The translations under genes and the position numbers were made by a program. Under the pieces are notes generated by a model. That model searched no databases. It was not told the DNA's origin and was given only the letters and a program-made list of their open reading frames with translations. A stretch of DNA of 64,000 nucleotides from a virus. Where the stretch lies: positions 16,033 through 80,032 of IMG/VR virus record IMGVR_UViG_3300003177_000020. One strand, 5' to 3'. This document shows, in pieces, positions 29,080 to 50,843 of this stretch (position 1 is its first letter; the number at the start of each line of letters is the position of its first letter).

Positions 29080-29367
29080 ATGACACACAGAATGTTACGA
29101 TTTGAAGAAATGATCTCCGAGATCGCATCCACAACGGGAGCCACAAAAAAGGAAGCTGCCAAAGTGATCAACGCTTACATTGATCTTATAGATCGGGAAC
29201 TGCAAGAAGGAAATGATGTCCGCTTGAAAGGGATCGGCAGATTTTGTGTTCGCACTTCCAAATCCAAGAAAGTGATCAACAAATATTTTGGTGTGAATCG
29301 CACCATACCACCGAAGAAATACATACATTTTCAATGCAGTGAAAAAATGCTGCGAAGAATCAACTAG
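29080..29367 (+). CDS. HU/IHF-like DNA-binding protein
   Basis: The 95-residue product matches the HU fold: TKKEAAKVINAYIDLI in the helical part, then VRLKGIGRFCVRTS, where HU has GFGTF-V. The long arm that normally carries the basic DNA-contacting ribbon is short here. It could bend or organise phage DNA. It is the only + strand gene in the 26-38 kb accessory region and converges on the anti-CRISPR homologue with an 11-base gap. Confidence 0.8.
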   Translation: MTHRMLRFEEMISEIASTTGATKKEAAKVINAYIDLIDRELQEGNDVRLKGIGRFCVRTSKSKKVINKYFGVNRTIPPKKYIHFQCSEKMLRRIN

Positions 29368-29377
29368 GTATTAGATC

Positions 29378-29614
29378 TTAGGAGATTCCTCGGTCGACAA
29401 TTGGTGTCGATTCTTCGCAGCCGATCTTTGTTGGTGGCAGCCAGTATAGCACACTTTCTTTTCTTCCTTTTCCTATGCGGTAGGTGTGCCAGTGTGCGCG
29501 TCTCCAATGTGCTGCCTTTTGACTTCCGTTGCTGTTGCTATGTTGCGCAGTTCCTGTGGTGTTTTTGATATCGCTACCACGTCTATACCCAACATCGAAG
29601 CTGACGACTGCGCT
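29378..29614 (-). pseudogene. C-terminal part of the frame-broken AcrVA2-type gene
   Basis: In a different - strand frame from the upstream part, this stretch encodes VVSFDVGYRRG and then HWRRAHWHTYRIGKG with a final LYWLPP. This matches the AcrVA2 C-terminal pattern, in which IRRGHWHGYW is followed by VRWQPAV. It ends at a TAA (29380-29378). It has no start of its own and is the natural continuation of the gene at 30251-29583. Confidence 0.6.
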
Positions 29615-30251
29615 TCATCCTGTGTTTGATATCTGCATTTTTGCAGCAAATATAAAGAAGCAAGTTGATCCCAATGTTTGCGATCTTGAAGATCGGTTCA
29701 AACACAGATCCATCGTAATTTACACCACCATCACGAATGCCTGTGATGATTGCCTCTTTGATTCCCATACCAGAAATAAATGGAATGAATAGTGGCAAAG
29801 GAACTCCCGTTTCAAAAAAGACTGTGATACGCAATTCCTCTTTATAATTCAATGTGTTCATGTGATCATCAAACCAGTCAATCGAACACAAGAATCCTTC
29901 AATGTTTTGTTTCCCATATGGTATGAAGATTGCCCATTCTGGCATCTTGTACAGCAGTTCAAATGGGAGTGGTTTATTCCCCAGTTCAGTAGGCACAATC
30001 TTACCGATCAAATCTTCCTTGATCGTGTAAATGCCCTTTGTATACCACCAATTGAGATATGTGGAATATTCCCATGCGTCTCGTAATTTCTGATTGTAAG
30101 CTTTCGCATATTCCACACCAAAACTGATGGGGAATAAAACATGTTCGGGTATGTTATCGAATTGGTTGTCGCGCACGGCTTGCATTGCCAGTGCTGCAAA
30201 GTGCTTGTTGTTATCAATATGGGTTCGAACTGTGGAGAGAAATTTACGCAT
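29583..30251 (-). CDS. AcrVA2-family anti-CRISPR homologue (N-terminal part, frame-broken)
   Basis: The 222-residue frame resembles AcrVA2 in order: HVLFPI, then YTKGIYTIKEDLI (AcrVA2 has NTLGIYQLDEEII), MPEWAIFIPY (LPDWCVYVDI), EGFLCSIDWFDD, PLPLFIPF and a helical LLLYICCKNADI. The last residues before the stop (RQLRCWV) do not belong to the family; the proper C terminus follows in another frame to 29378. AcrVA2 is reported to block Cas12a production by acting on its mRNA and nascent chain. The start follows the ACTC-AAAAG-GAGT hairpin. Family assignment is from memory of the motif pattern. Confidence 0.65.
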   Translation of the reverse strand: MRKFLSTVRTHIDNNKHFAALAMQAVRDNQFDNIPEHVLFPISFGVEYAKAYNQKLRDAWEYSTYLNWWYTKGIYTIKEDLIGKIVPTELGNKPLPFELLYKMPEWAIFIPYGKQNIEGFLCSIDWFDDHMNTLNYKEELRITVFFETGVPLPLFIPFISGMGIKEAIITGIRDGGVNYDGSVFEPIFKIANIGINLLLYICCKNADIKHRMKRSRQLRCWV

Positions 30252-30300: not shown

Positions 30301-30636
30301 TTACACAAGATCCGTGATATCTACATCACAGTCAAAGAAGTTTTCTTCCAAAAATGCCAGTCTGTTTCGCACTTGCTGGCGTCGCTCTTCTTGTTCTTCT
30401 TTGAGTAAAATCTTGTTGTATGTTTTGTCGGAGCAGATTGCCTCGACTTCATTTTGAAGTATTTGTTTGTGGTTCATGTAGTAAGATGTGCGCTCCCATG
30501 CGCTTGCGCTTTCTGCCTCACGCTTCAATTCTTCTGCTCGTATTTTCAAGCTTGGAACTTCCCTGATGGCGAGGTTGTAGATCCATTCAAAGTTTGTTTT
30601 TGCTTTTTCTTCTTTGTAGTTTTTGTAGCTGTTCAT
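30301..30636 (-). CDS. Unknown helical protein co-transcribed with the AcrVA2 homologue (111 aa)
   Basis: The product is almost entirely charged helix (RAEELKREAES and EEQEERRQQVRNRLA) with an acidic end (DCDVDITDLV). The ATG at 30636 follows AAGGAGAACAGAG. It is the first gene after the promoter at 30682-30731, with only the anti-CRISPR homologue behind it. I see no HTH, so it does not look like a typical Aca repressor. Confidence 0.7.
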   Translation of the reverse strand: MNSYKNYKEEKAKTNFEWIYNLAIREVPSLKIRAEELKREAESASAWERTSYYMNHKQILQNEVEAICSDKTYNKILLKEEQEERRQQVRNRLAFLEENFFDCDVDITDLV

Positions 30637-40035: not shown

Positions 40036-40971
40036 ATGAATGATCGAATGGGATCACCTTTATGTTTTCCAGAATTGTTGATCAAAAAAGTAAAAGGAAT
40101 CATCCGATTATTTGAGACTGGCAGATTAGAAAGCAATTATGATCTTCTTGTGGTGCTGCCAGATGGTGCAGGGATCACATTTGGGGTTGAGCAGACAACA
40201 GAAAACAGCGGTGGTTTGTATCGATTGCTGCAAGTCTATTGTAATCTTGGTGGCAAGTTTGCAGATTTATTTGAACCTTACATGCGATTACTTTATGGCA
40301 GCCCAAAAGGGAAGAAGTGGGCATTGACCAACAATGATGAGTTTAAGGGTCTGCTGACAAGAGCGGTTCATTATGATTCGATCATGATAGCTGCACAGGA
40401 TTTGTATTTTGAAAAAGAATACATGCTGCCAGCCAGTATTATCAGTGGACAGTATGCTCTCACAATGCCTTTGTCTTTTGCGGTTATTTATGATTCGTGT
40501 ATCCATTCTGGTGTTGGGGATTACTTGTCAGAAGAACCACCAAAAAAAGGCACTCCTTGGCATTTGTGGCGATTTGAAGACAAATTGGATGCTGAATGCG
40601 AAGAACATGAAGAAATGGCTTCTATCGGCTCGTGTGAAGTTTTGGCTGGTGATGATTCCGAACTTCCAGATTTTAAATGGGATGATGACGAAGAAGAAAA
40701 AGCATTCATTTCTGGGTACGTGCAGTACAGATTGAATTGGTTGAAAAATCACAACAGGGAAGCTATCCGAGCGACAGCCTATCGCATGTTTGCTTTTCTC
40801 AGAATGATTGAAGCAGATAACTGGGATTTGGAATCTCCTGTTGAAGTTCATATGGCGAGGAATGGTGGATTTTTGAAGAACCCACCTTTGATTACAGATG
40901 GCAGTGTTGCAGGTATTCAAGTTGTGCTTGATGAGCTTATGTGTTCCGATGACGATTATGGTGTGGCGTGA
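40036..40971 (+). CDS. Putative endolysin, chitosanase (GH46)-like
   Basis: The 311-residue protein contains YDLLVVLPDGAGITFG followed by VEQTTENSGGLYRLL and, later, AVIYDSCIHSG. This pattern recalls the phage chitosanase-like (GH46, lysozyme fold) peptidoglycan hydrolases. An acidic insert lies in the middle (DFKWDDDEEEK). There is no signal peptide. It starts after AAAAGGAACAAGTGAT. The assignment rests on pattern memory, and the catalytic residues are not proven. Confidence 0.55.
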   Translation: MNDRMGSPLCFPELLIKKVKGIIRLFETGRLESNYDLLVVLPDGAGITFGVEQTTENSGGLYRLLQVYCNLGGKFADLFEPYMRLLYGSPKGKKWALTNNDEFKGLLTRAVHYDSIMIAAQDLYFEKEYMLPASIISGQYALTMPLSFAVIYDSCIHSGVGDYLSEEPPKKGTPWHLWRFEDKLDAECEEHEEMASIGSCEVLAGDDSELPDFKWDDDEEEKAFISGYVQYRLNWLKNHNREAIRATAYRMFAFLRMIEADNWDLESPVEVHMARNGGFLKNPPLITDGSVAGIQVVLDELMCSDDDYGVA

Positions 40972-49261: not shown

Positions 49262-49325
49262 TCATATTTGCAGATTATTTACACTGTGGATAAAATAGCG
49301 TTGTTTCTTATAGGGAGTTATGATT

Positions 49326-50843
49326 ATGGTTTCTGTGCAACAAGTGGTTGAGAATATTGCGGGTGCGAGTTCGGATGAGTTGATCCAAGCTCACAACGAG
49401 CTACATGCTATCTGGAAGTCTGGTGATGTGGAAGTCGAGCAAGCTGCAAAATTCAACGCAATTATTCGCGCTGTGCTGATTGAGAAGAATATCGCTCCCA
49501 CCGTGATCGATTCGGATTTGGATATGAGATCTGCAATCTGGATGGAAGAATCATCTTTATTTGATGTTGACAGTTCACCTGTTCACAAGATCCTTGCAGG
49601 TGAGAAACTGCAAATTGAAAAGGGTATTGGTGCCCAACTGTGGGGAAGTCCTGCTGGTAAAAGTAATATCGCAAAAAGGCTGCTTCCTATGTTCCCAGAA
49701 CATGATGCTTACACTGAATTGTTTTTTGGTGGAGGTGCTTTGTTTTGGGGTAAAGAAAAAGTTGAAACTGAAGTTGTGAATGATTTTGATGAAGAAATCG
49801 CATTTGCAATTAAGTTCACACGAGATATGACAGACGCAGATATTGAAAAGCTGAAAAAGATGAATTGGAATCCTATCAGCAAAGAAGAATGGGTGCGTTT
49901 GTTTAAGAGTGAACCTACAGATCCATTAGAGCGATATTATCGTTTTTTGAAAGTTCGTGTTTGTAGTTTCATGTCTCGTGGTTTGACTTTTTCTCCACAA
50001 CATTCTGGCGGTAAAAATATCCCTAAAAAGTTGGAACGTGCGCGGGAAAAGCTATCTGGTGTTCGTGTTTTCAATACTTCGTATGCGGATATAATCAAAC
50101 AATATGATAGCCCAACAGCTTTTCATTTCCTTGATCCTCCATATGTTAAGACGGATCAAGGTGTAGGTGAGAAGACATTTGATCACGAGCAGTTTTGGGA
50201 TATTTTAGCATCTCTTGATGGTAAGTGGATGGTGACATATCATATGTCACCATTTGATATGTTCGATGGTAAGTTCAAAGGTAAAGATTGGACTGTTGTT
50301 GAGATGGGGCATAGTCGCACGCGTGGTACTTCAGGGAATGGGGAGTACACAACAATTGTGACCATGAATTATCAACCCACAGAAGACCAGATCAAGTTTT
50401 GCACTACGAAACCATCAGATCGTCAAAAGGTGAAAAAACACGAGGCAGAAGACAACACTGATGTTTTGCGTTGGATACCTATTACAAAATCAGATACAAC
50501 ATCAGGTGATGCGCAGATTGTTATGGGTGTCGTGTTGGAACCTGATGGTGTGGATGCGCATGGGGATACGATTTCAGCACAAGAGATTGAAGATGCTGCG
50601 CACCAGTGGCTTGCAAAGTTTCAAAATGCAGGACTCATGCACTCTCGTCTTGTGAATGAAAAAGTGGAGTTGTACGAGTCTTATATTGCTCCTGTTGATT
50701 TTGAAATAGGCAGCGAACAAGTGAAGGCTGGTTCTTGGATTCTTGTCTATCATGTGCTGGATTCGGATTTATGGGCAGCAATTAAAAGTGGTGAATTAAC
50801 AGGATTTAGCATGGGTGGTTTTGCGCGACGTGTTGATCCTTGA
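49326..50843 (+). CDS. Dam-type DNA adenine methylase fused to XkdF-like prohead protease
   Basis: Residues about 100-350 are a D12-class (Dam-like) N6-adenine methyltransferase: GSPAGKSNIAKRL for the SAM site, ELFFGGGALFWGK, and DPPY at about 270. Residues about 375-505 are an XkdF-like prohead protease: WIPITKSD, GVVLEPDGVDAHGDTIS, a GLMHSR His, and GFSMGG near the end with the likely nucleophile Ser. The first 45 residues are a separate helical piece. The ATG at 49326 follows GGGAG with better spacing than 49320. Confidence 0.85.
   Translation: MVSVQQVVENIAGASSDELIQAHNELHAIWKSGDVEVEQAAKFNAIIRAVLIEKNIAPTVIDSDLDMRSAIWMEESSLFDVDSSPVHKILAGEKLQIEKGIGAQLWGSPAGKSNIAKRLLPMFPEHDAYTELFFGGGALFWGKEKVETEVVNDFDEEIAFAIKFTRDMTDADIEKLKKMNWNPISKEEWVRLFKSEPTDPLERYYRFLKVRVCSFMSRGLTFSPQHSGGKNIPKKLERAREKLSGVRVFNTSYADIIKQYDSPTAFHFLDPPYVKTDQGVGEKTFDHEQFWDILASLDGKWMVTYHMSPFDMFDGKFKGKDWTVVEMGHSRTRGTSGNGEYTTIVTMNYQPTEDQIKFCTTKPSDRQKVKKHEAEDNTDVLRWIPITKSDTTSGDAQIVMGVVLEPDGVDAHGDTISAQEIEDAAHQWLAKFQNAGLMHSRLVNEKVELYESYIAPVDFEIGSEQVKAGSWILVYHVLDSDLWAAIKSGELTGFSMGGFARRVDP

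What the first reader, a model, noticed from the sequence alone, without database searches (positions are those of the whole stretch)
29378..30251. AcrVA2-type anti-CRISPR homologue in a two-gene early unit, split by a frame change
The frame from 30251 shows the AcrVA2 order of motifs (GIY-(I/L)-E-(D/E)-(L/I)I, (M/L)P-(E/D)W, a following GF--xxD, a PLP-FIP strand), and the other frame to 29378 shows VGYRRG, HWRRAHWHTYRIG and LYWLPP, the family's C-terminal end. Both parts are adjacent and in order, so a single gene with a frame break near 29615 is the simplest reading; about 15-20 residues may also be missing there. AcrVA2 is reported to stop Cas12a production. A homologue in a virulent-type myovirus with its own promoter suggests a host with type V-A CRISPR, or another use of the fold.
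Basis: partly seen in the sequence, partly recalled or inferred. Interest (0 to 1): 0.82.

Follow-up and report, generated by a model that had tools for sequence, protein, structure and literature searches.

The report
Broken AcrVA2/FinQ-family gene in phage
A previously unseen phage carries a damaged copy of a gene related to an anti-CRISPR protein, AcrVA2, and the same protein family turns out to include FinQ, a plasmid protein that shuts off the transfer genes of a rival plasmid, so the family is probably a wider tool for silencing chosen genes and not only a CRISPR blocker.

Summary
Two adjacent minus-strand frames (29583-30251 and 29378-29614) independently match one family, phrog_6160, in order (E 2.6e-15 and 3.5e-12). 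The joined 290-aa protein is modelled confidently (pLDDT 89.1) and its closest solved structure is AcrVA2 (Z 18.9; next entry 2.6). The gene is broken in the record: the frame changes, the second frame has no ATG, GTG or TTG before the conserved HxRRxHWH motif, and a linker has 18 residues against 31-44 in 169 aligned family sequences. No second copy was found, so mutation and assembly error cannot be told apart.

The anti-Cas12a reading is only partly supported. FinQ, the IncI-plasmid inhibitor of F-plasmid transfer, is a clear AcrVA2 homologue (phmmer 7.8e-16). Cas12a was found in 0 of 77 (many draft) genomes carrying a family member, with the same search finding it in 6 of 101 others. I read the family as nascent-peptide-guided mRNA silencers with varied targets, a mechanism reported only for AcrVA2. 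This copy is a new, damaged member with unknown target. The promoter and host claims are not supported.

The parts
29583..30251 (-). N-terminal part of the AcrVA2/FinQ-family gene (222 aa, ATG; helical N-terminal region, middle domain and long helix up to LLLYIC-NADI)
   Evidence: phrog_6160 27-237, E 2.6e-15; relatives-only HMM 11-232
29378..29614 (-). C-terminal part in the other frame, with stop at 29378-29380 (DVG helix, HWRRAHWH motif, YWLPP strand); no ATG/GTG/TTG before the motif
   Evidence: phrog_6160 254-318, E 3.5e-12; 7ci1 AcrVA2 E 0.0083; start codons
29583..29614 (-). overlap of the two frames in which the frame change must lie; the family's Pro/Lys-rich linker is shortened here
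   Evidence: translations; linker 18 against 31-44 residues
30258..30262 (-). Shine-Dalgarno-like AGGAG, 6 bases before the ATG at 30251
   Evidence: sequence printed
30301..30636 (-). gene just upstream on the same strand, charged protein of unknown function; better start is probably ATG 30636 (AAGGAG upstream) than GTG 30663; whether it is co-transcribed is open
   Evidence: no family match below E 0.05; terminator-like site 30331-30312
29080..29367 (+). convergent neighbour: HU/IHF-like DNA-binding protein
   Evidence: PF00216 E 7.3e-19, phrog_379 E 6.8e-19

Best explanation
The locus is a damaged copy of a gene of the AcrVA2/FinQ protein superfamily (membership about 0.97; damaged in the phage itself and not merely in the record about 0.7). 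A loss in the linker between the middle domain and the C-terminal part removed at least 13 residues and changed the frame. As written, the gene makes a 222-residue protein without the conserved HxRRxHWH part and is probably inactive. The intact family most likely works as AcrVA2 is reported to: it recognises a stretch of a chosen protein as that protein leaves the ribosome, and this leads to loss of the mRNA being translated; the conserved C-terminal part is my candidate for the shared effector (mechanism inferred for the family, about 0.5). Phages and plasmids would use it against different targets (Cas12a for AcrVA2, F transfer genes for FinQ); the target of this copy is unknown and probably not Cas12a. 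Shown here: homology, fold, order of parts, loss of frame and linker, FinQ-AcrVA2 homology, no Cas12a found in 77 carriers. Inferred: mechanism, effector role of the motif, target, inactivity.
For: Both frames match one family in order, also with a relatives-only HMM. Joined protein: phrog_6160 8.5e-26, 28-318 of 322; AF2 pLDDT 89.1, pTM 0.88; Foldseek's only PDB hits below 0.001 are 7ci2/7ci1; VIA-align Z 18.9 over 243-255 residues, next entry 2.6. Family profile (14 rows, two of them the window parts) matches 7ci1 at 3.8e-40. FinQ alone matches 7ci1 at 7.8e-16 and nothing else up to E 1. HxRRxHWH is present in 6 of 6 aligned relatives found by the N part alone and in 11 of 12 aligned relatives in all (L008 has C for the second R); it is the most conserved segment in both sets. 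Linker outlier. No ATG/GTG/TTG before the motif in the C frame. Broken copies are rare among fetched relatives: 5 of 176 loci, two of them identical over the stretch compared. AcrVA2 mechanism: PMC13131331, passages; a meeting report says tagged Cas9 and Cas12f can be silenced by AcrVA2 (PMC12908700, passages), which fits peptide-guided silencing. FinQ acts on tra transcription: PMC8744291, passages.
Against: All 14 columns invariant in A2 survive on both sides of the break and the C part still matches well, so the break must be recent, or an error in the record. The N part has a good ribosome-binding site. The mechanism is reported for AcrVA2 only, and PMC13131331 says the degradation machinery is unknown and that the crystallised peptide site (Cas12a 618-634) is not the N-terminal LSKT site. 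FinQ is described as ending tra transcription at several sites, which is not the same statement. Fold match is clear but loose (TM 0.59-0.65, rmsd 5.3-6.3 in Foldseek). The joined protein alone matches AcrVA2 only at E 0.0011. The tree gives neither AcrVA2 nor the window protein a supported place.
Confidence: 0.6

Rival explanations
1. The break is an assembly or sequencing artefact; the real phage has an intact gene that works.
For: One record; no second copy found in viral contigs, where near-identical records may be left out by the tool; conserved positions intact on both sides.
Against: The record lacks at least 13 residues of linker as well as being out of frame, so it is not a one-base miscall; a mis-join would be needed.
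Confidence: 0.2
2. The 222-residue product is a functional short form that keeps the middle domain and does without the C-terminal part.
For: Good ribosome-binding site and an open frame of 222 codons.
Against: The C-terminal motif segment is the most conserved part of the family, also among the 6 relatives found by the N part alone (mean share of the commonest residue 0.80, other segments 0.38-0.61). C-terminal remnants still match well, so the part was probably under selection until recently.
Confidence: 0.12
3. The two frames are joined by programmed +1 frameshifting during translation.
For: The downstream frame is +1 and the overlap holds a Leu CTT followed by CGA, a setting in which +1 slips can occur (codon behaviour recalled, not tested).
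Against: No unusual RNA fold over 29520-29619 (z -0.50); 164 of 176 fetched relatives are full length in one frame; the linker is too short in the joined protein.
Confidence: 0.06
4. It was a true anti-Cas12a protein of a phage whose host has type V-A CRISPR.
For: Nearest solved structure is AcrVA2.
Against: 0 of 77 carrier genomes have a Cas12a match; identity to AcrVA2 18-22%; FinQ and other plasmid members belong to the same family. Cas12a is rare anyway (1 of 369 genomes of one class) and many carriers are drafts or MAGs, so this argues against Cas12a as the general target but not against single cases.
Confidence: 0.12

Closest known systems
AcrVA2 (Moraxella bovoculi prophage; PDB 7ci1, 7ci2)
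   Same: Same fold over nearly the whole joined protein (Z 18.9) and the same HxRRxHWH motif
   Different: 18-22% identity; here the gene is out of frame with a linker of 18 residues (43 in AcrVA2); no sign of a Cas12a-bearing host
FinQ of IncI plasmids (fertility inhibition of F)
   Same: Same family: phrog_6160 1.5e-45 for FinQ, 8.5e-26 for the joined window protein; FinQ matches AcrVA2 at 7.8e-16
   Different: Plasmid-borne, longer (361 and 363 aa in the two read here), acts on F transfer genes according to PMC8744291
Shewanella phage vB_SbaS_Y11 ORF43 (PMC10846135, passages)
   Same: A phage protein assigned to AcrVA2 by sequence and fold; the paper calls it the first isolated phage with a putative AcrVA2 and mentions a type I-E system in a Shewanella genome
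   Different: Reported as a predicted 358-residue structure; its sequence was not compared here
phrog_6160 (unknown function)
   Same: Family of record for both frames
   Different: No function given in PHROGs; link it to AcrVA2 and FinQ

Membership tests
AcrVA2/FinQ superfamily (phrog_6160) | Significant profile match over the whole length | tested here: met
   Joined 8.5e-26, 28-318 of 322; parts alone 2.6e-15 and 3.5e-12
AcrVA2/FinQ superfamily (phrog_6160) | AcrVA2 fold | tested here: met
   AF2 model of the joined protein pLDDT 89.1; 7ci1 Z 18.9, next entry 2.6
AcrVA2/FinQ superfamily (phrog_6160) | Conserved HxRRxHWH motif | tested here: met
   Present in the C part; 11 of 12 aligned relatives and 6 of 6 found by the N part alone have it. 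Its invariance in the 120 rows proves little, as 119 of them come from loci fetched by this motif
AcrVA2/FinQ superfamily (phrog_6160) | One open frame, linker of 31-44 residues | tested here: not met
   Two frames; linker 18. The claim is therefore 'damaged member', not 'working member'
AcrVA2 proper (type V-A anti-CRISPR) | Inhibits Cas12a by loss of its mRNA during translation | not testable with these tools
   Needs an experiment
AcrVA2 proper (type V-A anti-CRISPR) | Host carries Cas12a | tested here: inconclusive
   Host unknown; 0 of 77 genomes carrying other members have a Cas12a match
AcrVA2 proper (type V-A anti-CRISPR) | Groups with AcrVA2 within the family | tested here: inconclusive
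   Long unresolved branches, no starred set holds either
FinQ | Groups with FinQ within the family | tested here: inconclusive
   The tool warns of long branches meeting (window with FinQ and one more) and that such joins may be false

The most novel reading that the evidence does not exclude
AcrVA2 and FinQ are two faces of one large superfamily of nascent-chain-guided mRNA silencers carried by phages, plasmids and bacterial genomes of many phyla. Each member reads a different protein's emerging chain and all share one C-terminal HxRRxHWH effector. The old report that FinQ ends F tra transcription at several sites would then be translation-coupled mRNA loss, and this phage carries a damaged member aimed at an unknown non-Cas12a target.
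Probability: 0.4. Interest if true: 0.75.

Novelty: new member of a known kind. Interest (0 to 1): 0.42.

Why it matters
The single damaged gene matters little. The family it belongs to matters more: one mechanism may link CRISPR evasion by phages with competition between plasmids, and FinQ in E. coli gives a simple laboratory system in which to test whether AcrVA2-like mRNA silencing is general and programmable. No paper in the library searched holds both names FinQ and AcrVA2, nor all of FinQ, anti-CRISPR and fertility inhibition. The AcrVA2 preprint is not held and may already say it.

Tried and rejected
PF14279 in the own record: a wrong guess at a family accession, no match. Close relatives of the N part, C part, portal, terminase and an ATPase in viral contigs: none confirmed by tblastn; the tool may leave out records near the window's own. 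Exact DNA of the junction and of the N part in viral contigs: 0 matches, same caveat. Pfam and NCBIfam for both parts: nothing significant (best DUF6978, E 0.22). Pfam for the joined protein: 0 families. PADLOC: nothing for the joined protein. Relatives of a virus record are not drawn by the genome search. Programmed frameshift: no fold signal, kept only as a weak rival. A tree of 91 rows with AcrVA2 and FinQ did not place the window protein with support. The frame break of L073/L074 lies elsewhere, after DVG, so it is not a shared recoding site. L105 and L150 have in-frame stops and L178 a frame change near its end (coordinates).

Mended on checking: the motif's invariance in 120 rows and its 3.54 bits are partly by construction, since 119 of those rows come from loci fetched by the motif; one search repeats the comparison on relatives found otherwise. 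The AcrVA2 linker is 43, not 42.

Full report
What is there. The window is bases 16033-80032 of an 80,032-base virus record. On the minus strand, frame 29583-30251 gives 222 aa from an ATG with a Shine-Dalgarno-like AGGAG six bases upstream. Frame 29381-29614, ending at the stop 29378-29380, gives 78 aa. Each frame alone matches phrog_6160 (322 positions): N part 27-237, E 2.6e-15; C part 254-318, E 3.5e-12. In the own record this family matches only these two places. An HMM built from 11 relatives, without the window, gives 11-232 and 254-333 of 339. The two frames are therefore consecutive parts of one gene.

It is AcrVA2-like. The C part alone finds PDB 7ci1, AcrVA2, at E 0.0083; the N part alone finds nothing in the PDB. 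The joined protein gives 0.0011, mostly from the C part, so single-sequence evidence is modest. The profile of the family (14 rows, two of them the window parts) matches 7ci1 at 3.8e-40 over positions 8-318. A structure model of the joined protein, made with 119 relatives, has mean pLDDT 89.1 and pTM 0.88. Foldseek's only PDB matches with E under 0.001 are three chains of 7ci2 and 7ci1 (TM 0.59-0.65, 18-19% identity). VIA-align gives Z 18.9, 243-255 residues, rmsd 3.7-4.4, 22% identity, with the next entry at 2.6.

The gene is broken in the record. The downstream frame has no ATG, GTG or TTG before the motif; its first is residue 55, and the motif starts at 36. From the cysteine of LYIC to the glycine of DVG the joined protein has 18 residues; 169 aligned family sequences, some of them near-duplicates, have 31-44, median 38, and AcrVA2 has 43. 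At least 13 residues are missing, and the shortened stretch is where the family has its PKKTK-G-RLFPA consensus. Of 176 relative loci examined, 164 are full length in one frame, 6 are partial in one frame, and 6 show more than one frame (L009 and L010, pieces of the own record, were not counted). Of these six, L073 and L074 are identical over the stretch compared, L143 has a full-length frame beside a fragment, and L105, L150 and L178 have a stop or frame change. Most relatives were fetched by a pattern in the C-terminal motif, so remnants without it are not counted. Reads are not available. No second copy of the phage was found, though the tool may leave out records near the window's own. So damage in the phage and mis-assembly cannot be told apart for certain; the extra loss of linker makes a simple base miscall unlikely.

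The family is broad and includes FinQ. tblastn of the two parts against plasmids hits 408 and 556 records; many of the 30 rows listed in each are annotated finQ. The E-values of finQ rows there are weak (0.03-0.1 for the N part, 8e-4 to 3e-3 for the C part). The direct test is stronger: FinQ of an Enterobacter plasmid (L016:688-1773) searched alone against all PDB sequences matches one sequence only, AcrVA2, E 7.8e-16, FinQ residues 88-349, and it matches phrog_6160 at 1.5e-45. Searches by the motif pattern gave 161 relatives among viral contigs and 127 among bacterial genomes, whose record titles name many phyla; 80 of each were kept. In print, FinQ of IncI1 plasmids is said to end transcription of the F tra operon at several sites (PMC8744291, passages, citing Ham and Skurray 1989, not read). 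AcrVA2 is said to recognise the nascent N-terminus of Cas12a (LSKT) and to trigger loss of its mRNA by unknown machinery (PMC13131331, passages), and to allow silencing of tagged Cas9 and Cas12f (PMC12908700, meeting report, passages). Both proteins act on the expression of a chosen gene. That FinQ works as AcrVA2 does is my inference. No paper in the library holds both names.

Cas12a is probably not the general target. TIGR04330 was found in 0 of 50 and 0 of 27 genomes carrying a family member (77 handles for the 80 loci L099-L178; L107 and L109, titled Azohydromonas australica like L106, and L151, from the contig of L143, were not sent). Many of these genomes are drafts or MAGs, so single absences are weak. 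The same search found Cas12a in 6 of 101 genomes of one group and 1 of 369 of another; the family was in 3 of 369 drawn the same way, one being the centre of the draw. With so low a base rate, 0 of 77 does not show avoidance. It suggests that most carriers have no Cas12a to inhibit.

How it most likely works. HxRRxHWH is found in 11 of 12 aligned relatives that were found by tblastn (L008 differs at one residue) and in 6 of 6 found by the N part alone. That segment is the most conserved of the ten compared in both sets (mean share of the commonest residue 0.78 and 0.80; other segments 0.32-0.53 and 0.38-0.61). The invariance in the 120 rows is partly by construction. The simplest reading is a shared effector at the C-terminus and a recognition surface that varies. 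The role of the motif is not known from any call. The 222-aa product as written would lack it.

Surroundings. The gene lies among short minus-strand frames, just below a gene of unknown function (30301-30636) and convergent with an HU/IHF-like gene (29080-29367). Promoter-like sites are no more common than in shuffles; terminator-like sites are (5 against 1.4), and one on the minus strand at 30331-30312 lies at the end of the upstream gene. So neither 'own promoter' nor 'two-gene unit' is supported. The phage is far from known ones: its portal is 28-32% identical to those of Rhizobium, Aeromonas and Rhodobacter phages and its terminase about 24% to the best-ranked matches. Host unknown. No tyrosine integrase match in the record.

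Verdict. A real, damaged, distant member of the AcrVA2/FinQ superfamily. The Cas12a reading is unproven and not favoured. The wider point, that FinQ and AcrVA2 are homologues, is the part worth following.

Noticed in passing
window 49320-50843 (+): One 507-aa frame matches DNA methyltransferase families over residues 113-394 and head maturation protease families over about 384-504: an apparent fusion of a methyltransferase with a capsid protease near the portal gene. phrog_13242 (unknown function) covers most of it, so the arrangement may occur elsewhere.
   Followed up: no
window 40036-40971 (+): 311-aa protein with a match to glycosyl hydrolase family 46, E 1.1e-6, 28.9 bits against a cut-off of 27; GH46 are chitosanases (recalled), so possibly a hint at the host or lysis.
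   Followed up: no
L014:359-1743 (Thioflavicoccus mobilis plasmid): An AcrVA2/FinQ-family gene overlaps a small gene that itself overlaps the end of a gene annotated brxL of a BREX system: the family in an apparent defence operon.
   Followed up: no
L011:937-2028 (E. coli IncI plasmid): The finQ frame is 363 aa from an upstream ATG; the record annotates a start at 1249, which cuts off the N-terminal part.
   Followed up: partly
L143/L151 contig (Blastocatellia MAG): One contig carries more than one family member.
   Followed up: no
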